Part shown: positions 45,784 to 59,819 of the stretch, in pieces | How the letters are laid out: the number at the start of each line of letters is the position of its first letter | Position numbering within the stretch: position 1 is the first letter of the stretch | Made by a program: the position numbers and the translations under genes | The notes under the pieces: generated by a model | What the model was told of the DNA's origin: nothing | What the model saw: only the letters and a program-made list of their open reading frames with translations | The model's database searches: none | Assembly: GCF_000166135.1 (NCBI RefSeq) | Contig: NC_014666.1 | Location: 2,914,001 to 2,978,000, forward strand | Direction of reading: 5' to 3' | Length of the DNA: 64,000 bases | From: Pseudofrankia inefficax | GTDB taxonomy: Bacteria > Actinomycetota > Actinomycetes > Frankiales > Frankiaceae

Positions 45784-46182
45784 TGCGGCTCTCCTCGCGG
45801 GAAGAATGCTCGTCAAAACAGCCAGAGCGCGACCGGCGGTGCGTCTTTCCGATCCCCAGATGATCTTCGCGTGCGGCAAATCAACCGTAGCACCGCGTGA
45901 TAGTGCGGGCAACGGGCGGTAAAGTGATCAGGATTGGTCGTCGTCAATTGACGATCCGAGCTGCCGGATCATGATCGAGACCTGCTCGTCATAGGCCCGT
46001 ACGCCGGCAGCAGCGGTTAAACGCGAATTCTTCCAGTTTCTTCGAGCCTGCCCGAGATGGGCCGGGTCGCCCGTCAGTGGCCCTCGGAAAGAGATAACCA
46101 GGGGGAGTGGCGGCCGGGGAGAGCATCCGGTGCCGCGCGGTCGGCTGGGTGCGGCGACGCGAGCGTTGGCAGGGCCAATAAC
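45784..46182. other. Divergent regulatory region with palindromes
   Basis: About 400 bp between divergent genes, noticeably AT-richer. It contains a perfect 14-bp palindrome (listed separately), plus GATCATGATC near 45965-45974. No short gene is supported. Confidence 0.6.
45941..45954. promoter_or_regulatory. Perfect 14-bp palindrome, candidate operator
   Basis: TCGTCAATTGACGA is self-complementary across all 14 bases. It lies in the divergent space between the copper-storage-like gene (158 bp away) and the flavodoxin-like gene (229 bp away). A regulator binding site is plausible; neither its regulator nor its target is known. Confidence 0.5.
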
Positions 46183-46647
46183 ATGGTGTCGATGCCGACG
46201 CTTCTGATCGTCCACCACACGCCGTCGCCGTCCATGCAGGCGATGTTGGAAGCAGTGCTCGCCGGCGCCAGGGACGACGCGATCGAGGGTGTGGAGGTCG
46301 TCGTCCGCCCGGCCCTGGCAGCCACCGCGGTCGATGTGCTGGCGGCCGACGGCTACCTCCTCGGGACCCCGGCGAACATCGGCTACATGTCGGGCGCCTT
46401 GAAGCACTTTTTCGACACGATTTACTATCCGTGTCTCGACGCTACTGTGGGTCGTCCTTATGCCCTCTACGTCCATGGCAACAGCGACACGACCGGAGCG
46501 GTCCGCGGCGTCGAGACGATCGCCACCGGTCTGAGGTGGAAGCGCCTGCGCGATCCGCTCTCCGTGACAGGTCAACTGGACGCCGCCGACCGCGAAGCGT
46601 GCTGGGAACTTGGCGCTGTCGTCTCCGCGAGTTTGGCAGACGGCTGA
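46183..46647 (+). CDS. Flavodoxin-like/NADPH-dependent reductase-fold protein
   Basis: A 154-aa protein with a flavodoxin fold: a first strand TLLIVHHTPSPSMQAMLEAVLAGA with the phosphate-binding loop, and the FMN loop region GYLLGTPANIGYMSGALKHFFDTIYYP. The ATG at 46183 follows AGGG by 8 nt; an ATG at 46192 is the alternative. It probably reduces a small substrate or acts as a redox partner. A truncated copy of its middle part lies at 47.7 kb. Confidence 0.82.
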   Translation: MVSMPTLLIVHHTPSPSMQAMLEAVLAGARDDAIEGVEVVVRPALAATAVDVLAADGYLLGTPANIGYMSGALKHFFDTIYYPCLDATVGRPYALYVHGNSDTTGAVRGVETIATGLRWKRLRDPLSVTGQLDAADREACWELGAVVSASLADG

Positions 46648-47712: not shown

Positions 47713-47855
47713 CACGTTGTTGACGACGCCTGTCCAGGCTTGGTGGCCACCGCGGTGGATGTGCTGCCAACCCATGACTCCCTGCTCGGCTCGCCGGCCA
47801 ACATCGGTTACATGTCAGGGGCTTTGAAGCACTTCTTCGAGCAGATCTTGGGTAC
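47713..47855 (+). pseudogene. Truncated copy of the flavodoxin-like gene
   Basis: Translation gives VATAVDVLPTHDSLLGSP and continues NIGYMSGALKHFFEQI. This is nearly identical to the middle of the intact gene at about 46300-46425, with substitutions throughout. Both the 5' third and the 3' end are missing. The fragment stops within 20 bp of the last gene of the Wadjet operon, so it may mark a junction where that locus was inserted. Confidence 0.8.
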
Positions 47856-47873
47856 GCCGCGCGCAGAAGTTGA

Positions 47874-49199
47874 TCAGAGGGCGAGGTCCGCCAGAAGATC
47901 GTCAAGCAGAGACTCCTCGTGGACAGCCACGCCCGCTCGGATCATCGCGGCCGCGAGATCCGGATCCCACGCGGTGGCCTCGGGCGTGCCCGTGAGCGGG
48001 AGGCCGACGTCGGCGGCAAGCCCCGCCACCGCCCTCCGGTAGTCGGCCGCTGACATCCTCCAGGGCGTCGCGCCCACCGCGAGAAGACGGGCCGCGATCG
48101 CGATTCCCGGCCAGTCGAAGTCACCGTGGTAGCGGACCGGAGCGCCGTCACCGACCAGTGTTCGCACCAGACGTGTGCCGACCTCGGCCGGGCTGCCGGA
48201 GAGGCAGACCAACGGCGCCGAGACCTCCGCTCGGGCAGCGGCCTGGAGGACCTGCGGGTTCTCGCAGAGCGACACCACCTGGCCGCCCGGACGCAGCCGC
48301 ACCTTCCCAGCACGTTCGAGCTCGTGCAGCGTGAGGTGGGTGACGAGGCCGAGGTCCGCTCGCAGGCGCATCATCTCGGACCACGGGTCGCAGCCCGGTG
48401 GGCGAAGCGACCAGACGAGGACGGTCCCGGACACGCTGTCGGTCGCGACGCCGACCATCCGCCACAGCGCGCGCCTGTCGGCCGACGATGCCGGAGCGGG
48501 GAGTCCGCAAGCGATCGCGACGGCACGAAGAACGGCCGCGCTCGTCAGACGCGCATCGTCCAGTCCATGCGAGTCGCCCGTTGTCGCCGTTGCGAGGGCG
48601 CCGATCTGTAACTGGGTGGACGCTTCGCCGGGAAACGGTTCGTCCGGGGCGGTACAGAGGCCAGGCGCCGACGTGCGGCCTAGCTGCCCAAGGGCGTGGG
48701 CGGCGTCGGTGACGGCTCGGCGCGCGATATCGGCGCCGGCGCGGGTGAGTATCCCGGTGCGCCTCAGGTCGGCTACCCAGATTCCCACCCAAGGGGCCGT
48801 GCCGAGGCCTTCGTCATGCAGCGTTTCGTCAAGAGCGCGCCATACTCGCGCCCATTGTTCGTCACTGATGCGCTGGTCGGCCTTCCGGTCGCGCAGGGTC
48901 TCGCCCGAGAGACTCTCCAGTACGGACACGAGGCCGCGGCCGGCCTTGGATGCGCGCAGCGCGACGTCGAGATCGGCGAGTCGGATCGCGCGGCCCGCTC
49001 CCGCCGGGACGGCGACGCCGAGCAGCCCGGACAGCTGCGCCGCGGCGGCCTCGTCCAGATCCATCCTGAGCGTGCCGGTCGGCTTGAGCTCGTTGCGCTC
49101 CAGCCGTGCCCGCGCCGCCGCCCACACTGGCGCGAGAACCGGAGCCTCAAGATAGGCCCGCGTCGCGGCCGGCAGCGGGGTGGGCGACGGGGACATCAT
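47874..49199 (-). CDS. jetD: Wadjet nuclease subunit JetD (TIGR02679/DUF2399 type)
   Basis: Predicted Toprim-fold nuclease that cuts plasmid DNA captured by the JetABC condensin-like complex. The protein has 441 aa. The Toprim acidic pair is in YHGDFDWPGI (residues about 357-366). A conserved Glu lies in SLCENPQVLQAA, and the end carries HEESLLDDLLADL. The start ATG at 49199 overlaps the jetC stop. Order and overlaps match the four-gene set TIGR02677-02678-02680-02679. Family assignment is by my recognition of motifs and order. Confidence 0.9.
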   Translation of the reverse strand: MMSPSPTPLPAATRAYLEAPVLAPVWAAARARLERNELKPTGTLRMDLDEAAAAQLSGLLGVAVPAGAGRAIRLADLDVALRASKAGRGLVSVLESLSGETLRDRKADQRISDEQWARVWRALDETLHDEGLGTAPWVGIWVADLRRTGILTRAGADIARRAVTDAAHALGQLGRTSAPGLCTAPDEPFPGEASTQLQIGALATATTGDSHGLDDARLTSAAVLRAVAIACGLPAPASSADRRALWRMVGVATDSVSGTVLVWSLRPPGCDPWSEMMRLRADLGLVTHLTLHELERAGKVRLRPGGQVVSLCENPQVLQAAARAEVSAPLVCLSGSPAEVGTRLVRTLVGDGAPVRYHGDFDWPGIAIAARLLAVGATPWRMSAADYRRAVAGLAADVGLPLTGTPEATAWDPDLAAAMIRAGVAVHEESLLDDLLADLAL

Positions 49200-52100
49200 G
49201 CGGACCGAAGGAAATGCCGGTTTCGGCCGTCCCAGCGCACGTGCACCGTCGCGGCCGGCCCGCCGCCGTCCTGGCGACAGATCTCGTAGATGTCGAGGGC
49301 TGGTACCTGCGGGACACATCCCCACAGGGCGTGGCCCGTCATCGCGAAGTCCACGTCGAGGCGCACGAGCAGACCAAGCAGTTCCGCGATCGTGGGCTCG
49401 TCGACCTTGGCGAAGGCGTCGTCGAGGAGAATGAGCCGCAGCGCGGTGGCGGTGTCGTCGAGGCCCGACAGATACGCGTCGACAGCGGCGAACAGCGTGA
49501 CGTACGAGACGAACCGGGTCTCGCCCTGGGACAGCTTGGCGCGCCGGCTGATCTTGCGTTCCTGGCCCGGCTCAGGACCGGTGATGATGACCTCGACCGT
49601 GTGCCAGGCGCGATAGTCCAGAGCGCGGCGCAGGTAAAGGGCGTATCCACCGTTCGGTTCGGCGATCGCCGCGGCGGCGACTCTGTCCCGCAGCAGGCTC
49701 AGCAGTTCGGCGTCCTGTGCCTGGCTGCGTACCGAGGCCGCGGTGGCGGCCAGCTGTTTGATCCTGCCGGCGGCCGCGTCTCCCTCCGTGTCGAGCTTCC
49801 ACGTGAGCCGGACCCCGATCCCGTGGCTGGTCTGGATGGACCGCAGGCTTCTGTTCATCGCCTTGACGAGGTTGTCTGCCTGGAGCAGGCGATTCCGGAG
49901 CTCTTCGCCGACCTCGCCGAGGATGAACTCGGTGAACACGTGCTGCTCGCGTTCGGTGAGCGCCGCGCGGCCTCGTTCGCGCTTGGCCGCAAGCTCACCG
50001 GCCGCCTGGACGAGCGGCCGCCGGCCGTCGGCGTCGGTCAGTTCGTAGAGGAGGATGTCGCTTTCCCGGGTGACGGTCACCTCGTAGCTCGCGGAGATCT
50101 CACGTTCGAATCCCTGTTGCGCGCGGATCAGTGCGTTCTCGTCGATCCGAGCCTTGCGAAGCCCGGCGAGCAGGATGGTTACGTCCGCGTCCACGCCGGC
50201 CGTCGACGAGTCGGTGAACGGCTCCGCGGGCTTTGTCGTGAATGCCGTGTCGACGACACCGGGCTCGCCTAGCTGGATACGGACGGCCGTGACCTGTTCG
50301 GTGAGACCGGCCCGCGCCTCCACGGCCCGCTGGCTCGCCGCCCGTGCGTCGGCGACGGCCGTCGCGGCACTGCCGCGAAGCCGGTTGACTATTCTCTCCG
50401 TGTCCTCCCGCTCACGTTCGGCCTTCAGCTGGCGCTTCTCGAGGGCTCGAAGCTCCTCCAGCACCTGGGCCGGGTCGGCTCCGAGAGCGTTCCGGAGTGC
50501 CTGGAGCCTGGTCTCCCCGGCATGCCACTTGTCCCAGGCTCGTGCGGCGTCGTCCTCGGCCCGGGCGCGTGGAGCCGCCTCGTCGTCGAGAGTGGCGACG
50601 GCGCGCTGGTGCCGGGCCATCGCCGCGTCGAGGGCGTTGATCTGCCCGATCGCGCGGTCACACGTGTCCGCCGCCGCGTTGGCGCCGCGAACCAGGCCGG
50701 TCAGCTCGTCGACGTCGGCGGGCAGCCCGAACTCGGCGCAGGCCGCGCGGTGCGCCCGCTCGTCGGCGGCCAGTGCGACGGTCCGGTGGTCGGCCTCGGC
50801 CCGCAGCCCGGCGGCCTTCGCCGCGGCCTCGCCGGCGAGACGCGCCTCGAGCGCGGCCCGCAGGCGGGCCTCCCCGAGCGGATTCGACCGCGGGACCGAC
50901 CACAGGTGATCTCGGATCGCCTTCTTGCGCGCGCCGATCCGCTCTCGCTGTTCCTCGCGTTCCCGCAACGTTTCCGTGAGTACGGCGAGCTCGCTGTCGA
51001 TCTCGCCGAGACGACGGATCCGGCGGGCTTCCCGAGCGGCGGCACCGATGTGCTGGGCCGCCGCGACGGTGTGCCGGCCCCGCACCGGGCCGTTCGCCCA
51101 GCTGCCGTCGGCCGACACCCAGGTGGGGACGGACCGGTCGGCAAGCCCGATCCGGCCGAGCAGAGCGACGACCACCTCAGGGGCCGCCGGGCCAGCCGAG
51201 TCGGGCACAAGCCGGTCGGCGAGGGAGACGGCGGCCCGCGGGCCGGTCGGCGACACGAGCAGCTGACCGCTGGCCGCCGTCAGGCCACCCGTGGACTCGA
51301 CGGCGGCTGTCAGGAGGCCGGAGGCCAGGAGCGCCGCTTCGAGCCCGGCTTTCTCGTCCTCGGGAGTGTCGGCGGCGAAATCGACGCACCGCCACAGCGG
51401 CGCGTCACTCGTGGCGGTGACCCAGACCGGCGCTGACGGCGGGGCGTCCCGAAGGTTCAGGAGATCCTTCCGCTCCTCCTGAAGCACCAGGACCGCGCCG
51501 CGGTCCCGCGTGTCGAGGGCCGCGAGCCGCTGCAGCTCGGTCGTCAGCAGGTCTCGCGCACTGTCGGCCGCGTCGATGGGCGCGCGGTCGAGGTCCGCGA
51601 GATCGACCGAACTGTCCGTGCCACAGAGCGCCAGCTGGTCGCGAAGCAGCGGGCCGAGGGCAGCGGACGCCGACCAGTCCACGTCGCCCAGGAGGCCGGC
51701 GGTCGCGGGTGCAGCCAGCCACGCGCGCCACCGCTCGACGAGGCTGACGGCTTCGTCGTCCCGACGCTCGGCCTGCTGCTCGGCCCGGTCCGCCGCGGCG
51801 CGCGCCCCGTCGTCCGCCTCGTCGGCCCGCTCGACGGTCCGCCTGACCTCGTCTCGCTCGGTGGCGATCCGGCGAGCGTCGGCCGCCCTTGTGGTCGCGT
51901 GCGAGGCCCGCAGCCGCACGGCATCCCGCACGCGGATGGTCGCGCCACGCAACTCGGCGAGGTCAGCGGGAACCACGCGCACCTCGTCAGCCACGGGGCG
52001 CGCGAGTGGGCCAGGGGCGGCTTCCCGGCGCAGCCGGACTATCTCGGTTCGCTGGCCGCGCGGCGTCCGCAGCAGGCCGACCGAGGCGGGCAACTCGTGG

Positions 52101-53386
52101 GTGGCGAGCCCCGCGGCGGTCAACTGGCCGCGAGCCTGGCCGATCGTCGTGGACAGGCCGTCGACGCTGGCTGTCAGCTCGTCGGCCAGGCCGTTGGCGG
52201 TGGCCGCCTTGTCCGCTTCGCCGTCGCGCCGCAGCTGGGCCGTTTCCAGCCGGGCCTCGGCGGTCGTGGCGAGTGAGCCGACGGTTGCGGCCAGGTCGGT
52301 GAGCTCCTGCGCGCCTCGGTAGCGGTCCGACTCCTTCAACGCCTCCAACGCGGCTCGTAGCGTCGCCATCTCCTGGTCGCGCAGCGCGCGGTCTTGCTCC
52401 GCGAGGGAAAGCTCGCGGGCGAGCCCGTCCGCCGTCAGACGGAGACGTTCCGCCCCGACCTCGGCCCCGGCGCAGGCCGCCGCGTGCTGCCGCAGCCGCG
52501 TGAGCGACTGGGTCAGCACCCCCGTCACGTAACGACGATAGGTGTCGAGGAACGACACGACCTGGTCGTGGGCGGCCTCAAGCCGCTGCTGCTCCTCCCG
52601 GGTGCTGGTCAGGCCGTCGAGCTGCTGGCCGGCGTCCGTCAGTGCCTCCTCGGACAGGGAGGGCAGTGCGTCGGCGACGATCAGTGGCAGCTTCCCCTCC
52701 TCGATCCTGTTGCCCACGTCGGGGGAGCGCAGTGTGTGCAACAGCCGCATCAGGCCGGCGAAACGTTCCTTGCTGGCCTCACCGCCGGTGAGGCCGAACA
52801 CCTCGGCCCGCACCCGTTCGCGATGCCGTTCCGGCCCATCGCTGATCCGGTCCTCCCCGATGGCCTCGCCCAGTTCGCGCCGCGAGAGTGGCGCCCGGTC
52901 CGAGGTCATGAGCATGAGCTCGTGGCCGACTCGAAGCGGCGTCGTGAAGTACCAGACCTTGGCCGCTTTCGTACTCGCGGAGAACTGAACCAGCGCGCCG
53001 AGCGTCAGGAACTGCCCGGTCGGGTCCTCGTCGGGCTCTGTCTGACGACGAAGCTCAAGCCACAGATAGCCGAGCCGGTTTGTCTGGCCTGCGGCGCCCG
53101 CGGACATCAGGTCCTCCATGCGCACCGCCGAGCCTGTTCCCATGTTCCGTCGATCGGCGTCGAGGAGGAACGGCAGCAACATCTCCAGGGCGCGGGATTT
53201 CCCCGACCCGTTGGTGCCCCGGAGAATCAGGCGGCCACCGGAGAGGTCGAAGACGTTGTCGTAGTAGTGCCACACGTTGACGAAACCGGCGCGCGACATC
53301 CGCCAGCGGTGGGGGTGGTGCCTGGCCAGCATCGGGCCGAACGTGTCCTGGGCGGGATCACCGAGTGCGAGAGCCTGCTGCATCAC
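49196..53386 (-). CDS. jetC: Wadjet SMC-like ATPase JetC (TIGR02680 type)
   Basis: Condensin-like motor of 1396 aa. Walker A is LRGTNGSGKS (residues 55-64). Two long coiled-coil zones surround a hinge-like middle region. The ABC signature LSQGETRFVSY (about 1285) and Walker B LRLILLDDAFAKVDEP (about 1318-1330) close the head. It lacks the hook zinc motif of Rad50. The GTG at 53386 overlaps the jetB stop. In studied Wadjet systems the homologue extrudes DNA loops and selects small circular DNA. Confidence 0.93.
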   Translation of the reverse strand: MMQQALALGDPAQDTFGPMLARHHPHRWRMSRAGFVNVWHYYDNVFDLSGGRLILRGTNGSGKSRALEMLLPFLLDADRRNMGTGSAVRMEDLMSAGAAGQTNRLGYLWLELRRQTEPDEDPTGQFLTLGALVQFSASTKAAKVWYFTTPLRVGHELMLMTSDRAPLSRRELGEAIGEDRISDGPERHRERVRAEVFGLTGGEASKERFAGLMRLLHTLRSPDVGNRIEEGKLPLIVADALPSLSEEALTDAGQQLDGLTSTREEQQRLEAAHDQVVSFLDTYRRYVTGVLTQSLTRLRQHAAACAGAEVGAERLRLTADGLARELSLAEQDRALRDQEMATLRAALEALKESDRYRGAQELTDLAATVGSLATTAEARLETAQLRRDGEADKAATANGLADELTASVDGLSTTIGQARGQLTAAGLATHELPASVGLLRTPRGQRTEIVRLRREAAPGPLARPVADEVRVVPADLAELRGATIRVRDAVRLRASHATTRAADARRIATERDEVRRTVERADEADDGARAAADRAEQQAERRDDEAVSLVERWRAWLAAPATAGLLGDVDWSASAALGPLLRDQLALCGTDSSVDLADLDRAPIDAADSARDLLTTELQRLAALDTRDRGAVLVLQEERKDLLNLRDAPPSAPVWVTATSDAPLWRCVDFAADTPEDEKAGLEAALLASGLLTAAVESTGGLTAASGQLLVSPTGPRAAVSLADRLVPDSAGPAAPEVVVALLGRIGLADRSVPTWVSADGSWANGPVRGRHTVAAAQHIGAAAREARRIRRLGEIDSELAVLTETLREREEQRERIGARKKAIRDHLWSVPRSNPLGEARLRAALEARLAGEAAAKAAGLRAEADHRTVALAADERAHRAACAEFGLPADVDELTGLVRGANAAADTCDRAIGQINALDAAMARHQRAVATLDDEAAPRARAEDDAARAWDKWHAGETRLQALRNALGADPAQVLEELRALEKRQLKAEREREDTERIVNRLRGSAATAVADARAASQRAVEARAGLTEQVTAVRIQLGEPGVVDTAFTTKPAEPFTDSSTAGVDADVTILLAGLRKARIDENALIRAQQGFEREISASYEVTVTRESDILLYELTDADGRRPLVQAAGELAAKRERGRAALTEREQHVFTEFILGEVGEELRNRLLQADNLVKAMNRSLRSIQTSHGIGVRLTWKLDTEGDAAAGRIKQLAATAASVRSQAQDAELLSLLRDRVAAAAIAEPNGGYALYLRRALDYRAWHTVEVIITGPEPGQERKISRRAKLSQGETRFVSYVTLFAAVDAYLSGLDDTATALRLILLDDAFAKVDEPTIAELLGLLVRLDVDFAMTGHALWGCVPQVPALDIYEICRQDGGGPAATVHVRWDGRNRHFLRSA

Positions 53387-54624
53387 AGCTCCGGTTCCGG
53401 CTGGAACGAGGCGGCGCGGTATCCCAGGCGACGAGCCGCCCGTGTCGGTACCTCGCTGGCCGGCAGTGGGCGGTATCGGGCGGCGGCGGGATGGATCACG
53501 AGGCCGCCTGGGAGGACAGAAACCAAACCGACCTCGGCGAGTGTCGTCGCGACCAGGTCCCGCAGTTTGCGCAGGTCCTCCAAGGCAGCCGAACTCCATG
53601 CCTTCGCGTGTTCCTGGGCCAGCCGAGTGAGCACCGAGTCGACCTCGGACCAGCCGGCCGCCAACCCGGCCACGGCGCGCCCGTCGCGCAGCACGGCCGT
53701 GTCGCCCGGCTGCGGCTCCCGCCTGGCAATCAACGCGTCGACCAGGAGCAGCGCTGCCTGCCTGACCGTGCCGGTACCGGGAAACGGGCTGTCGGTCAGC
53801 GATCCCGTCGCGTCGTAGGCGAGAGCGCCCTCCGCTCGTACCTCGAGGGTGAGGCCGAAACTGTCCGCGAGCACCCGAGTCAGCTCGGACCGTTCGCGCG
53901 AGAGAACATCGCGCTCGGCCTCTGTGAGATCCTCGCGCCGGACAAGGGGGTTCTCCACCAGCCGGCGGCGTAGCGACCGCCGCGGTTGATCGGCGGTCGC
54001 TGGATCGCACGCGAGGAGATCGTCCGCGGTGGTCATGCCGGACAGCGGACGGGCGAGCAGGTGTGGAAGCTGGTGACGATTGATGTGAAGCAACGCCTCG
54101 TCAATCTGCCGCTCTCCCCAGGCCGCCGCGGTTCCGTCGGCCTCGACGAGAACTCCCCAGCGCACGAGGAGGTCGACGGCTGTTACCAGCGCCCGGCGTT
54201 CCGGCAGGGTGTCGCCAATCGGTACCCCGATCGTCGCCGCGTCCGCCCGGACCTGGTCGATCAACGCCGAGATGAGAATCATCTCGCCCGTGCCCGGCGC
54301 CAGCAGCGCCGCGCAGAGGAGGGCCAGATGCGTGTAGGCGATGGGAGTGAACGGGCCGCCGTCGCCCCGCCGGGCGGGCCGCGCGGGGGTGTCCGCCGTC
54401 AACGGCGCCTTGAACAGCCGGGCGAACTGCGCCTCGATGACGAGGACGTAACCGAGTTGCTTCTTGAAGGTGCTGCGCAATGCCTGCGCGTGCAGGCGAA
54501 CCAGCGCCAGCTCATCGGGATGCGCCGCGGCCGTCAGCACGGGGTTGGCCAACAGCGCGCGGGCCGCGTCGACCCTCTCCTGCGCCGCTCGGGCCGCTGT
54601 GCCCGCGACGGGGGCGAAGCTCAC
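53383..54624 (-). CDS. jetB: Wadjet subunit JetB (TIGR02678/DUF2398 type)
   Basis: A 413-aa protein, predicted winged-helix (KITE-like) partner of the kleisin and SMC subunits. Notable segments are LVRLHAQALRSTFKKQLGYVLVIE, AYTHLALLCAALLAPGTGEMILIS and ALVTAVDLLVRWGVLVEADGTAAAWG. The ATG overlaps the jetA stop and its own stop overlaps the jetC start, so subunit amounts are probably coupled. The identity rests on order and family-like motifs rather than a catalytic signature. Confidence 0.88.
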   Translation of the reverse strand: MSFAPVAGTAARAAQERVDAARALLANPVLTAAAHPDELALVRLHAQALRSTFKKQLGYVLVIEAQFARLFKAPLTADTPARPARRGDGGPFTPIAYTHLALLCAALLAPGTGEMILISALIDQVRADAATIGVPIGDTLPERRALVTAVDLLVRWGVLVEADGTAAAWGERQIDEALLHINRHQLPHLLARPLSGMTTADDLLACDPATADQPRRSLRRRLVENPLVRREDLTEAERDVLSRERSELTRVLADSFGLTLEVRAEGALAYDATGSLTDSPFPGTGTVRQAALLLVDALIARREPQPGDTAVLRDGRAVAGLAAGWSEVDSVLTRLAQEHAKAWSSAALEDLRKLRDLVATTLAEVGLVSVLPGGLVIHPAAARYRPLPASEVPTRAARRLGYRAASFQPEPEL

Positions 54625-56180
54625 GAGTTCACCGCCTTCCGCGCCCGCTCGAAGTCCTCGCCCAGCGGCAGGGCCCAGAGCAGCAGGCCTTCGATGGTCA
54701 GGACGCCGTCGTCCCCGTTGATGACGGTCTGACTGCCTGGGTCAGGCGCTCCCCACAGCGTCAACCCGAGGTCGGATACCGGGTGGTCTGCCTCTTCGTG
54801 GCCGCCAGCCGCCGTGGTGAACAGCGCGGGGACCAGCTCGAGAAGCAGGTCCCGAGCGGCTCGGCTGAGGTGGCTGCCGTGGAGCCCGCCGGCGGCGAGA
54901 AGCTCGGCCGCGGCCATCTCACGAGCCCTCGTCCGCTCCTGCGCCTGTGCCTCCAGACGCTCGGTCTGAGCCTTTGCGTCGGGCACGCGTGACGCTCGTC
55001 CCCGCGCGGTGCGATCACCTCGTTCCCGCAGCGAAACCGGCACGTCGACGGGCGCCGCCACCCACCATGAGGTACTCGGCCCGGCCCGCAGGTCCTGCTC
55101 CTCGGGCCCGAGGAGCAGATGCCGGGCCGGGAACGCGCCGAACGCGGCATCGAACATGCGATGCGCGGTCTCGCCGTCCGCGCCGTGGAACCAGCCCGCG
55201 AGCCTGAGGAGATCGGCCCGGCGCGAGACCCCGGTCCCGGACGCGGTCAGCATGCGCTTGGCGTTCGCGATCAGCTGGCCGAGCGCCTGGCGGGCGGCCA
55301 CGCGCAGCTGCTCGGGCCCAGATCGTTGGTCGGACGCCCCGTACCAGGCGGCGAGCTGTTCCCAGTCCGCGAGTGTCCGTCCCGGCAGTCGCTCGACCAC
55401 GATGAGGCGATCGCCCGCGGTGGGCGGCGCGGGCAGGTTGGCGAGCAACGTGTCGATCAGCGGGGGAGTGAGCAGGGTCTTCAGCCGGTTCAGAATCTCG
55501 GGCGCGTTCCGGGCGACGTCGGCCCCAATCAGGTCCACATAGTCGAGAAGCAGGTCTTTGAACTGGGCGTACTCCTCGCCCGCGAGGTCGTACCGGGTCA
55601 GGACGCCAGCCAGGTAGGCATAGAAGTCGGTCACGGACTCCTGGAACAGCCGGTGGTCGTTGAAGACCCCGGTGACCTGACCGGCTAACGACTCCGCGTC
55701 GACCGGCACCCTGTCGTACGAGACCTGAAGGAGGATGATCCTGAGGGTGTCGGAAATCCGCGCGAGCAGTTCCCGGGCGACCTCCCGCGCGCCGTCGACG
55801 GTCCGCAGGATCTCTTCGGCCTCGCGATGGAGCCGGCCGCCCAGCTTCGAGACCTGATAGCGGGACCGGGACCGGTGGTAGGCGGCGACGGTGCGCACCC
55901 GCGTCTCCCTGACCGACCGCACCAGGTTGCCCCAGACGACTAGTTGCGCGCAGCGGCTTTCGACAGCGTCGGTGTCGAGGTCAAGGCCCCGCTCGGCGAG
56001 CCGCGACGCGACCTCGGCTGCGGAGAGGTCCGCCAACAGGGTCTCGGTGAACAGCCGCATGACGGCCATGTACTCGTCGGCGGCCTCGACAGTGAGATAG
56101 GTGAAAAGCGAGCGCCTGGCCGCCATCTCGCGCGCGGCGGACGCCAGGTCCGGCTCGCCGTCGCCGTGGTCGTGCGCCAT
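54621..56180 (-). CDS. jetA: Wadjet subunit JetA (TIGR02677/DUF2397 type)
   Basis: First gene of the Wadjet operon; a 519-aa protein acting as the kleisin-like bridge. The N-terminus reads LFTYLTVEAADEYMAVMRLF, followed by winged-helix-like VASRLAERGLDLDTDAVESRCAQLVVWGNLV and HRSRSRYQVSKLG. A helical middle (YLAGVLTRYDLAGEEYAQFKDLL) and a C-terminal domain follow, ending GLLLWALPLGEDFERARKAVNS. A G-rich ribosome site (GGAGGGGGG) precedes ATG 56180. The stop overlaps jetB. Confidence 0.9.
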   Translation of the reverse strand: MAHDHGDGEPDLASAAREMAARRSLFTYLTVEAADEYMAVMRLFTETLLADLSAAEVASRLAERGLDLDTDAVESRCAQLVVWGNLVRSVRETRVRTVAAYHRSRSRYQVSKLGGRLHREAEEILRTVDGAREVARELLARISDTLRIILLQVSYDRVPVDAESLAGQVTGVFNDHRLFQESVTDFYAYLAGVLTRYDLAGEEYAQFKDLLLDYVDLIGADVARNAPEILNRLKTLLTPPLIDTLLANLPAPPTAGDRLIVVERLPGRTLADWEQLAAWYGASDQRSGPEQLRVAARQALGQLIANAKRMLTASGTGVSRRADLLRLAGWFHGADGETAHRMFDAAFGAFPARHLLLGPEEQDLRAGPSTSWWVAAPVDVPVSLRERGDRTARGRASRVPDAKAQTERLEAQAQERTRAREMAAAELLAAGGLHGSHLSRAARDLLLELVPALFTTAAGGHEEADHPVSDLGLTLWGAPDPGSQTVINGDDGVLTIEGLLLWALPLGEDFERARKAVNS

Positions 56181-56280
56181 CCTGGTGGGCCCCCCTCCGC
56201 ACTACGGAAGGACGCTAGACCCTGGGTGTGACAGTTCCGCGCCAGCCCGCCGTACGATCTGCGCCACAACTGCGCGCTTT

Positions 56281-57375
56281 TCAGTCCCGCGAATAGAGGT
56301 CGACTGGCAGGAAGGTGCGGACGGGTACGGGCTCTGCCCGCATCATTCGCTCCATGAGGTCGACGGCGTGTTCGGCGAGTCTGGCGTGGTCCTGTACGAC
56401 CGTCGCGCAGAGCGGGCTCACACCCGAGTCGACGAGCGCGACGACCTCGGACGTCCCGTCCACGCCGATCACCTGAGCAGCCGCTCCGCCGCCGGAGGCG
56501 AACATCTGCACGGCGTCGACGGCGCCGAGCGCCATCTCGTCGCTTGTGCAGAAGATCATGTCGACCGATCTTCCTTGCTGGCCGAGGGAGGTCAGCTTGC
56601 GACGAGCGATGTCCCTAGCGCGCCTGCGAACGAATCCGCCTTCCTCGTCGAGGACGATCTCGGCCTGAGGGCACCGGTCGCGCATCACTTCGACGAATCG
56701 CCGCTGCCGGCCGGTCTGGCCTCTACCCGCGATCACCAGCACGACCGGGTTCGCTCGACCCTCGCGACGCAGCTGGTCGGCGACGAAGTCGGCGGCCCGT
56801 TCGCCGATTTGTTCCGGGCGGTATCCGACGAACGCGGCGTTGGGCGGGTAGTCGCTTTCGTTGCGGAAGGGATCCACGTCCGCGAACACCACCGGAACCG
56901 AGGCGTTACGACAGAACTCCGCCAGGTCCTCGTACGTGTTCTCCGGGTCGGCCGGGATGACAAGGCCCGCGGAGTACCGGGCGCTCTTGGTGATGGTCTG
57001 TCGGAGGCGGTAGTTCTGCGCGGCGCCGAGGTAGTCCCGGTCGGGAATCTTGAGGACGAGGTCGAAGCCCCGGCGGTCCAGGGACTGGTCGACCGCCCGC
57101 AGCAGGTCGGCGAGCCAGTGCTTCTGGCCCCAGGCGGACATCACGACGAAGACATTGCGCTGCGGTCCAGTCCGCCACCACTTTCTCGAACTCAGCACAA
57201 GAAGGAGGAGAAGGAAAGCGACCGTGCCGAGGAAGATTCCGATGGGAACCCTGGCGCCCGCCAGCGGACTGTTCCTCAGTTTTCCGAGCGCGCTCGTCGC
57301 GGCGATGACACCGAGCCCGCCGAGCACCGAGGTGACGATCGCGAACAGCACCGGTCGCCGCACCGGGTCAAGCAT
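56281..57375 (-). CDS. Membrane-anchored periplasmic-binding-fold (sugar-binding type) protein
   Basis: A 364-aa protein with two N-terminal helices (about residues 8-30 and 46-66), then a type 1 periplasmic-binding domain. That domain runs from NVFVVMSAWGQKHWLADLLRAVDQ through FCTSDEMALGAVDAVQMF to IGVDGTSEVVALVDSGVSPLCATVVQ. It has no signal peptidase site, no lipobox and no helix-turn-helix. Positive residues flank the helices at MLDPVRRP, GKLRNS and RKWWRTGPQR, which places the binding domain in the cytoplasm by the positive-inside rule. It lies 100 bp upstream of jetA on the same strand. Its ligand and role are unknown. Confidence 0.8.
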   Translation of the reverse strand: MLDPVRRPVLFAIVTSVLGGLGVIAATSALGKLRNSPLAGARVPIGIFLGTVAFLLLLLVLSSRKWWRTGPQRNVFVVMSAWGQKHWLADLLRAVDQSLDRRGFDLVLKIPDRDYLGAAQNYRLRQTITKSARYSAGLVIPADPENTYEDLAEFCRNASVPVVFADVDPFRNESDYPPNAAFVGYRPEQIGERAADFVADQLRREGRANPVVLVIAGRGQTGRQRRFVEVMRDRCPQAEIVLDEEGGFVRRRARDIARRKLTSLGQQGRSVDMIFCTSDEMALGAVDAVQMFASGGGAAAQVIGVDGTSEVVALVDSGVSPLCATVVQDHARLAEHAVDLMERMMRAEPVPVRTFLPVDLYSRD

Positions 57376-57730
57376 GCGAACGCCCTGCCTCCATCCGCCC
57401 TCCTCGTTCCTGTGAGCAGGCGTGAAAGGTCCGTGACGATTCTTCGGGCTTCCGCGAGAGCGTCAGGCGAGATGACTCCGACAGGCGCCGACCAAGACCT
57501 GAGGGATCAGCCGGTGAGCCTACCGGGAACGCGACCGACGGGACCGATGATTCCAATACCCTCATCCTCGGGTCGACGAGGGGCCTCGACCGGTGATGAC
57601 GGAGCACCAGACGACGGAGCACCAGCGGCGACGACGGAGGATCGTAGCCGCGGCTCGGAACAGGCGGCGGAGTCAACGGGAAGCGTCGCGGAGTCAAGTC
57701 CGCACGCCGGCGGTGCGGCAGGTTGGACCC
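57376..57730. other. Divergent intergenic region, binding protein/MFS
   Basis: These 355 bp carry promoters for both directions. A short direct repeat GACGGAGCACCAG occurs at 57598-57610 and 57613-57625. No gene is supported; the open frame upstream of the MFS start has no ribosome site or family-like sequence. Confidence 0.55.
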
Positions 57731-58903
57731 ATGAGCAACCAGACCTCCGCGCCCGCGCCGACCGGCGAGGCCACCGTCCGGGCGACGGCCTGGGCGCCCG
57801 TGGCCGCGCTCGCGTCGGGGACGACCGTGCTCGTGACGAGCGAGTTCCTGCCGGCCGGCGTGCTGCCGACGATGGCCGCGGACATCGGTGTCAGCGAGGG
57901 CGTCGCGGGTCTCGCGGTCGCGGCCACGGCGATCGCGGGCGCCTTCACGGCCCCCACGATCGCGCTGCTGCTGCCGCGGACCGACCGTCGCACGGTGCTC
58001 ATCGTGCTGCTGACCGCCGGCGTGGTCGCCAACCTCGCCGTGACGGTCGCGCCGAACTTCGCCGTGCTGCTGCTGGGGCGACTCCTGCTCGGCATCGCGA
58101 TCGCCGGATTCTGGTCGTTCGCCTTTGGCGCGGGCCTGACCGCGATGCCCGGCCGGCCGAGCGCCGTGTCGACCGCGCTCGCGTTCGGCGTGAGCCTCGC
58201 GACGGTGCTGGGTGTGCCGCTGGCCGCGCTCGTCGGCAACGACGTCGGCTGGCGGGCCGCGTTCGCCGGCGCCGCGGCCGTCTGCGCCGCCGCGGCGGCC
58301 TGGCTGGCGGTCAGCCTGCCAGCGGTGCCGGCGCATCCGTCCGCCGGTCTGCCGATGCTGCGGGCGGCCCTCGCGCGGCGACGGCTCATGGCGGGGATCG
58401 GATGCGTCGCGCTCGCCGCGTTCGGGAACTTCGCCAGCTACCCGTACATCAGGGTCGCGATCGAGCGGGTGAGCGCCGACACGACGTGGCTGCTCGTAGC
58501 CTGGGGCGTCGGAGGCATGGCGGGCAACTTCCTAGCCGGCGCGCTCGCCGCGAGGCTGCGGCAGCTGGCGGCCGGGGCGCCGGTCCTGCTCGCCGCCGGA
58601 CTGCTGATCACCGCCACGGCGCACTCCGTCGTGCCGCTCGCCGCCGGGATCGTGCTGTGGGGGTTCGCGTTCAACATGCTGCCGGTCGCGACCCAGCTGT
58701 GGGTGACCAGAGTCGAGCCGGACCGCGCGGAGGCCGCGGTGTCGCTGCAGGTCACGGCGTTCCAGGTCGCGATCACACTGGGCGCCTCGGTGGGCGGTGC
58801 GCTGCTCGACGCCCACGGCGTGCGGGTGCCGCTGGTCGTCGGGGCCGCCTCGGCGCTCGCCGCCGGCCTCGGCTTCGGGCTACTGCGGGTGCCCCGCGGC
58901 TGA
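57731..58903 (+). CDS. MFS transporter (DHA1-like, sugar/drug efflux)
   Basis: A 390-aa protein with twelve hydrophobic segments. The N-terminal TSEFLPAGVLPTMAADIGVSEGVAGLAVAATAIAGAF and GRLLLGIAIAGFWSFAFG are typical of the DHA1/AraJ-like efflux group. GFAFNMLPVATQLWVTRVEPDRAEAAVSLQ marks the second half. The ATG at 57731 opens shortly before helix 1. Its 3' end overlaps the convergent AraC-type regulator by 24 bp. Substrate unknown. Confidence 0.9.
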   Translation: MSNQTSAPAPTGEATVRATAWAPVAALASGTTVLVTSEFLPAGVLPTMAADIGVSEGVAGLAVAATAIAGAFTAPTIALLLPRTDRRTVLIVLLTAGVVANLAVTVAPNFAVLLLGRLLLGIAIAGFWSFAFGAGLTAMPGRPSAVSTALAFGVSLATVLGVPLAALVGNDVGWRAAFAGAAAVCAAAAAWLAVSLPAVPAHPSAGLPMLRAALARRRLMAGIGCVALAAFGNFASYPYIRVAIERVSADTTWLLVAWGVGGMAGNFLAGALAARLRQLAAGAPVLLAAGLLITATAHSVVPLAAGIVLWGFAFNMLPVATQLWVTRVEPDRAEAAVSLQVTAFQVAITLGASVGGALLDAHGVRVPLVVGAASALAAGLGFGLLRVPRG

Positions 58904-59707
58904 CGACGACGTCGCCGCGCGCCACGCCTGCGGCGCCGCGCCGTGGTGGGCGGCGAACGCCCTGCTGAACGCCGCGACCGAGCGGTAGCCCACCGCGGAC
59001 GCGACCCGTCCCACCGGCTGGGAGCCGTCGGTCAGCAGCGTGCGCGCGTGGTGCATCCGCAGCTCGCGCAGTATCTCCATCGGGGACCGCCCGGTCGCGC
59101 GCCGGAACCGCGCCGTCAACGCGGATCGCGACAGGTGGGCCAACCGCGCCATCCGCTCGGGCGTCCAGTCCTCGCCCGGATCCGACGCGAGCGCGGCGAG
59201 CACGTCCGCGACGGCCTCGTCCTGCCGCGGCCGCTCGTCGGGTTCGCGCGTCTCCAGCCAGGAGGTCACCAGCGCGGCGCCGAGCAGGCTCGCGTAGCCG
59301 AACGCGAACAGTGGCGTGAGACACCGGCCTTCGAGCGGGCACGTTCCGATGAGGCGCGTCACGGCGGGATGGCGACCGCTGAACCCTCGCACGACGAACG
59401 GGCTCGGCAGCCGGTAGGACGACGCCACCACCGGCCGCAGGTCGGCGGCCGCGAGCAGCAGGTCCTCGCCGGCGACGAGCCGGTGGGCGGTGCGCGCCGC
59501 GACGAGCGCCGCGTCTCCCGTGTCGAGACCATGGCGACCGGCCGCGGTCTGGAGCTCCGCGGAACCGTCCAGAACGAGCATCCACAACGGACCCCGCGCG
59601 GGCGGGAGGGCCGAGCCGGCCGGAACGCGCTCGTGCTCGAGCCGTGACATCTCCCAGACGTTCCCGTGCGTCGAGAGCCGCCCGGCGTCGGACCTCGGCT
59701 CGTTCAC
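58880..59707 (-). CDS. AraC-family transcriptional regulator (cupin type)
   Basis: An N-terminal cupin-like sensor region (WMLVLDGSAELQTAAGRHGLDTGDAALVAART) is followed by the two AraC helix-turn-helix units near the C-terminus. These are ERMARLAHLSRSALTARFRRATGRSPMEI and VGRVASAVGYRSVAAFSRAFAAHHGAAP. GTG 59707 is chosen (275 aa); GTG 59719, GTG 59761 and ATG 59650 are alternatives without better ribosome sites. Convergent with and overlapping the MFS gene, it is a plausible regulator of that exporter. Confidence 0.88.
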   Translation of the reverse strand: MNEPRSDAGRLSTHGNVWEMSRLEHERVPAGSALPPARGPLWMLVLDGSAELQTAAGRHGLDTGDAALVAARTAHRLVAGEDLLLAAADLRPVVASSYRLPSPFVVRGFSGRHPAVTRLIGTCPLEGRCLTPLFAFGYASLLGAALVTSWLETREPDERPRQDEAVADVLAALASDPGEDWTPERMARLAHLSRSALTARFRRATGRSPMEILRELRMHHARTLLTDGSQPVGRVASAVGYRSVAAFSRAFAAHHGAAPQAWRAATSSSAAGHPQ

Positions 59708-59819
59708 AGTCGCGGCCACACCGACAGAGCGCTGTGCCGGGCACGGCGTATTCCGGACCACGGGCCGGTGGGCGGTCTACGTTCCTGCATGAAGTTGGGC
59801 GTCGACGGCGAGATGTCGG

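What the first reader, a model, noticed from the sequence alone, without database searches (positions are those of the whole stretch)
47874..56180. Complete Wadjet-type anti-plasmid operon of the DUF2397/2398/2399 class
Four minus-strand genes overlap stop-to-start throughout: JetA-like, JetB-like, a 1396-aa SMC-like ATPase with Walker A, LSQGE signature and Walker B, and a Toprim protein with GDFDWPGI. The order matches the TIGR02677-02678-02680-02679 set. All key motifs appear intact, so this is probably active. As far as I recall this is the type III Wadjet layout, which is far less studied than type I.
Basis: partly seen in the sequence, partly recalled or inferred. Interest (0 to 1): 0.8.

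Follow-up and report, generated by a model that had tools for sequence, protein, structure and literature searches.

The report
Type II Wadjet anti-plasmid operon
This is a complete four-gene Wadjet operon of type II (not type III), a known bacterial defence that probably reels in small circular plasmids and cuts them; it is ordinary for this bacterial family except for an uncommon, lineage-specific change in its motor's ATP-burning site.

Summary
Four overlapping minus-strand genes (47874-56180) encode JetA (DUF2397), JetB (DUF2398), a 1395/1396-aa SMC-like JetC (TIGR02680, 695 bits) and JetD (DUF3323+DUF2399). PADLOC's type II models (JetA2/B2/C2/D2) match all four. The nearest solved structure is the Neobacillus vireti Wadjet-II JetABC complex (9qe0). 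Predicted folds fit: JetD resembles Topo VI-A, MksG and JetD; the JetC hinge matches the Wadjet-II hinge best.

Toprim residues are intact. The JetC ATPase site is not quite canonical: Walker B reads LILLDDAF, with Asp where SMC ATPases usually carry the catalytic Glu, coupled to an LS[QE]GE signature. Ten of 32 aligned JetC2 proteins share this pair; the other 22 have DE, as does N. vireti JetC. RecF of the same genome also has DD, so this is a lineage trait rather than decay, but its effect is untested.

The operon fills 8.5 kb where a same-genus genome has 111 bp between orthologous flanks, so it is a variable-site element. JetC2 genes occur in 26 of 35 sampled family genomes against 16 of 246 from the phylum. 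Verdict: new member of a known kind; low-to-moderate interest.

The parts
54621..56180 (-). jetA2, DUF2397 kleisin-type subunit, 519 aa, ATG start
   Evidence: PF09660 410.6 bits; PADLOC JetA2 PDLC00541 662.6 bits; TIGR02677 147.6 bits, below its cut-off 165.85; PDB 9qe0_E JetA 7e-15
53383..54624 (-). jetB2, DUF2398 (KITE-type) subunit, 413 aa, GTG start, 4-nt overlap with jetA
   Evidence: PF09661 313.6 bits; TIGR02678 over cut-off; JetB2 367.6 bits; PDB 9qe0_D JetB 6e-4
49196..53386 (-). jetC2, SMC-like ATPase, 1396 aa from GTG (1395 from ATG 53383); Walker A GTNGSGKS, signature LSQGE, Walker B LILLDDAF
   Evidence: TIGR02680 695.5 bits over full length; JetC2 1108 bits; PDB 9qe0_A JetC 8e-60; motifs
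50834..51616 (-). hinge of JetC with adjoining coiled coil (residues 590-850)
   Evidence: AlphaFold2 pLDDT 88.6; best match 9qe0 Wadjet-II, Foldseek TMq 0.62-0.65 against 0.33 or less for other SMC hinges, VIA Z 15.5 against 10.5
47874..49199 (-). jetD2, nuclease subunit, 441 aa from ATG 49199 (ATGA overlap with jetC); Toprim E313, D360, D362
   Evidence: PF11796 + PF09664; TIGR02679 212.6 bits; JetD2 404 bits; Toprim residues invariant in 14 aligned sequences; fold matches Topo VI-A, MksG, JetD, Spo11
47731..56273 (.). segment that stands where a same-genus genome (G002) has 111 bp between orthologous flanks
   Evidence: blastn of window against L041: 42536-47730 at 92.3% and 56274-59788 at 93.4%, adjacent in G002
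47741..47848 (+). fragment of an FMN-reductase-like gene at the downstream edge of the inserted segment
   Evidence: 85% identical over 108 bp to a copy in G002, 81% over 95 bp to the window's own copy at 46321-46415

Best explanation
This is a complete type II Wadjet (JetABCD) operon. By homology, JetC dimers with the kleisin JetA and KITE JetB form an SMC motor that extrudes DNA loops using ATP; when a small circular DNA has been fully reeled in, the motor activates the Topo VI-A-like nuclease JetD, which cuts it, so circular plasmids are lost. Shown here: the four genes, their order and overlaps, family membership, intact Toprim residues, a Wadjet-II-type hinge, and a non-standard Asp in Walker B shared by a set of relatives. 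Inferred from published work on other Wadjets: loop extrusion, sensing of circularity, cleavage. Further inference: with a Wadjet-II-type hinge it should be unable to bypass tethered obstacles, as reported for N. vireti Wadjet-II.
For: All four proteins match Pfam, NCBIfam and PADLOC type II models. JetC, JetA and JetB match the solved Wadjet-II complex by sequence. The JetD model matches Topo VI-A (1d3y, Z 15.1), C. glutamicum nuclease (8b7f, 13.8) and P. aeruginosa JetD (7til, 11.8), with E313/D360/D362 invariant. The hinge model matches Wadjet-II 9qe0 best. Same gene order in unrelated annotated records. Overlapping reading frames without stops, and 70% JetC identity to an intact operon in Parafrankia sp. 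EUN1f. Literature: Wadjet types and mechanism PMC10586767; nvJET cleaves circular DNA and has a channel-less hinge, PMC12647877.
Against: No expression or activity data. JetA is below the curated TIGR02677 cut-off. Walker B carries Asp instead of the usual Glu, which could slow hydrolysis. No type II JetD sequence matched in the PDB, so the type II nuclease was compared only with more distant structures.
Confidence: 0.9

Rival explanations
1. The operon is a type III Wadjet.
For: Wadjet-III is also reported to lack a hinge channel (PMC12647877), so the hinge alone does not exclude it.
Against: All four proteins hit PADLOC models named JetA2, JetB2, JetC2 and JetD2 and no type III model at E <= 0.001. 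The nearest solved structure is a Wadjet-II complex.
Confidence: 0.03
2. The operon is intact in sequence but works slowly or as a DNA-binding complex with little extrusion, because Walker B has Asp in place of the catalytic Glu.
For: LLDDAF with LS[QE]GE in the window and nine other JetC2 rows against DE in 22 rows. Review PMC10586767 notes that a Glu-to-Gln Walker B change in Lamassu LmuB suggests low hydrolysis.
Against: The Asp is conserved in full-length JetC proteins of several families and on plasmids, so it is maintained. RecF of the same genome also has LLLDD, and RecF is a working ATPase by general knowledge. Asp can still act as a base, unlike Gln.
Confidence: 0.2
3. The operon is mainly an anti-phage or chromosome-maintenance (MksB-like) SMC complex rather than an anti-plasmid system.
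For: SMC-like MukBEF/MksBEF relatives act on chromosomes (general knowledge).
Against: It carries the nuclease JetD, and the operon lies in a variable site absent from a close relative, as expected for an accessory system.
Confidence: 0.06

Closest known systems
Wadjet type II (nvJET) of Neobacillus vireti, PDB 9qe0/9qe1
   Same: Same subunit families; JetA, JetB and JetC homologous in sequence; same type of hinge
   Different: Low sequence identity; nvJetC has SGGE plus DE in its head, the window's JetC has LSQGE plus DD
Type II Wadjet operon of Parafrankia sp. EUN1f (L021)
   Same: Same order A-B-C-D, JetC 70%, JetD 68%, JetA 79% identity; same LSQGE/DD head
   Different: No flanking genes shared with the window
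Wadjet type I / MksBEFG / EptABCD
   Same: SMC, kleisin, KITE and Toprim nuclease; JetD fold shared
   Different: Different protein families; JetC1 models match only the Walker B region, weakly

Membership tests
Wadjet type II (JetABCD) | JetA with DUF2397 (JetA2) | tested here: met
   PF09660 410.6 bits, JetA2 662.6 bits; TIGR02677 itself below cut-off
Wadjet type II (JetABCD) | JetB with DUF2398 (JetB2) | tested here: met
   PF09661 313.6 bits, TIGR02678 over cut-off, JetB2 367.6 bits
Wadjet type II (JetABCD) | JetC2 SMC-like ATPase of TIGR02680 type | tested here: met
   695.5 bits over 1-1356/1356; JetC2 1108 bits
Wadjet type II (JetABCD) | JetD2 with DUF2399 Toprim nuclease | tested here: met
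   PF11796, PF09664, TIGR02679 over cut-off; fold and E/DxD residues
Wadjet type II (JetABCD) | Four genes together in one operon | tested here: met
   Overlapping ORFs on one strand; transcription as one unit is inferred, not shown
Wadjet type II (JetABCD) | Channel-less hinge as in nvJET | tested here: inconclusive
   Monomer hinge model matches 9qe0 best, but the dimer and its channel were not modelled
   Asp instead, shared with nine other JetC2 rows
Wadjet type II (JetABCD) | Restriction of circular plasmids | not testable with these tools
   Needs a plasmid maintenance or cleavage assay
Wadjet type III | Match to type III Jet models | tested here: not met
   PADLOC scan lists only JetA2/B2/C2/D2 and weak JetC1 matches

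The most novel reading that the evidence does not exclude
A distinct set of type II Wadjets, including this one, uses a RecF-like ATPase site (LS[QE]GE with Walker B DD) and differs from the studied DE type in ATPase rate or in how extrusion is coupled to JetD cleavage.
Probability: 0.25. Interest if true: 0.5.

Novelty: new member of a known kind. Interest (0 to 1): 0.27.

Why it matters
It adds an intact type II operon from an actinobacterial family in which such operons are unusually common, and it points to a natural Glu-to-Asp variant of the SMC catalytic site that can be tested against the solved N. vireti system. Wadjet could also be one unrecognised barrier to plasmid transformation in Frankia-type bacteria; published work names type IV restriction as the likely barrier (PMC6769113) and no held paper mentions Frankia and Wadjet together.

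Tried and rejected
Type III assignment rejected. A second Wadjet in the genome was sought: TIGR02680 gives one locus, and one JetC1 model (PDLC00519) finds only this JetC. tRNA genes: none in the window; no base-composition break at the insertion; no useful promoter or terminator signal. The genome-contig scan gave a single relative, Parafrankia. A phylum search with the JetC protein failed on the server and was replaced by a TIGR02680 search. A JetC tree does not make the DD rows one group: at least two changes are needed because long-branch L071 (DE) joins two DD rows with weak support (88/76); apart from L071 the 21 DE rows form one side of a 100/100 branch, but whether DD or DE came first is not settled. 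The N. vireti structure paper and the original Wadjet paper are not held. The direction of change at the insertion site stayed open: G002 keeps what looks like the C-terminal end of an FMN-reductase-like gene (KRLREPLSIVGEV; score 48 against a shuffle 95% level of 36 and a maximum of 50 in 500), the window a middle part, so G002 may also have had a deletion.

Full report
What is there. The window is bases 2914001-2978000 of an 8,815,781-base single-contig genome. On the minus strand, four overlapping ORFs run JetA 56180-54621, JetB 54624-53383, JetC 53386-49196 and JetD 49199-47874. Every junction overlaps by 1-4 bases, which suggests one transcript with coupled translation.

Family membership. 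NCBIfam: JetB, JetC and JetD exceed the cut-offs of TIGR02678, TIGR02680 and TIGR02679; JetA reaches 147.6 bits against a cut-off of 165.85 for TIGR02677. Pfam: DUF2397, DUF2398, SbcC_Walker_B, DUF3323 plus DUF2399, all over the gathering score. PADLOC: JetA2, JetB2, JetC2 and JetD2, that is type II. In the PDB, JetC, JetA and JetB match chains of 9qe0, titled 'Neobacillus vireti Wadjet-II JetABC dimer'.

Mechanism. Published work describes JetA/B/C as kleisin, KITE and SMC, with JetD a Toprim nuclease, and three operon types of which type I is best studied (PMC10586767). nvJET cleaves naked circular DNA, has a channel-less hinge and cannot bypass tethered obstacles (PMC12647877). The window's JetD model (pLDDT 85.8) matches Topo VI-A, the C. 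glutamicum nuclease, JetD and Spo11, with E313, D360 and D362 invariant in 14 aligned sequences. The hinge model (pLDDT 88.6) matches 9qe0 well above other SMC hinges. I infer loop extrusion, sensing of circularity and cleavage by JetD; none of this was measured.

ATPase site. Walker A and the signature are present, but Walker B is LILLDDAF, with Asp in the place of the usual catalytic Glu. In a MAFFT alignment of 35 JetC2 rows (three are partial), ten rows have DD, all with LSQGE or LSEGE; the others that can be read have DE, nearly all with SGGE. Among the 32 rows used in the tree, 10 have DD and 22 DE. A Fisher test of that split gives 1.6e-8, but the rows are related by descent, so this is descriptive only. 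Two plasmid-borne Streptomyces JetC proteins also have LSQGE/DD, while Alicyclobacillus and Cupriavidus copies have DE. PADLOC does not separate the two: one model, PDLC00553, is best for both. RecF of the same genome reads LLLDDVFAELD. The tree needs at least two changes for the DD label; the 21 DE rows other than L071 sit on one side of a 100/100 branch. So the Asp is a lineage trait, not decay of this copy. A search for Wadjet, Walker B and RecF together found one review, whose passages do not describe this variant.

Genomic setting. In G002 (same genus) the orthologous flanks, 92-93% identical in DNA, are separated by 111 bp where the window has 8,543 bp. Pieces of an FMN-reductase-like gene lie at both versions of the site, so a second copy of that gene probably stood there. 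The other same-genus JetC2 proteins are only distant relatives, and the nearest are in another genus, so horizontal gain is likelier than loss, but this is not proven.

Distribution. TIGR02680 matches over the cut-off occur in 26 of 35 family genomes (own genome included, counted), against 16 of 246 in a phylum sample (own genome included there too). A Fisher test with the own genome removed from the phylum sample gives p = 8e-19; sampling by species and relatedness make this indicative only. A published survey reports Wadjet in 42% of Actinobacteria and 7% of other bacteria (PMC10482375).

Verdict. A real, complete, ordinary type II Wadjet operon, with a lineage-specific ATPase-site variant worth a biochemical test.

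Noticed in passing
L024 126-8201 and L025 7646-15808: Type II operons in two relatives (G007, G030) have the order C-A-B-D instead of A-B-C-D, and their JetC heads read LSEGE with LLDDAFAKVS.
   Followed up: partly
window 47741-47848 and 46057-46647: A 108-bp fragment resembling an FMN-reductase-like gene sits beside jetD; a longer paralogue lies about 1.4 kb away, and G002 keeps what looks like the other end of the fragmentary copy.
   Followed up: partly
G000-G034 (family sample): JetC2 over the TIGR02680 cut-off in 26 of 35 family genomes against 16 of 246 across the phylum sample.
   Followed up: partly
G012 C1:4545346-4545953: Only JetC2 fragments were found in this relative (query 1192-1353 and 583-626), suggesting a decayed operon.
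   Followed up: no
L080 and L083 (plasmid records): Type II operons lie on linear Streptomyces plasmids, which a circle-sensing system would be expected to spare; in L083 the DUF2397 gene is annotated as two pieces.
   Followed up: no
L081 514-12853: A type II operon on a circular 149-kb Alicyclobacillus dauci plasmid sits near a Cas12b annotated as two adjacent pieces.
   Followed up: no
window 56281-57375: Gene upstream of jetA: a periplasmic-binding-protein-like domain (Peripla_BP_4) with an N-terminal hydrophobic stretch, found at 97% identity in one same-genus genome, with at most a weak match in the others.
   Followed up: partly
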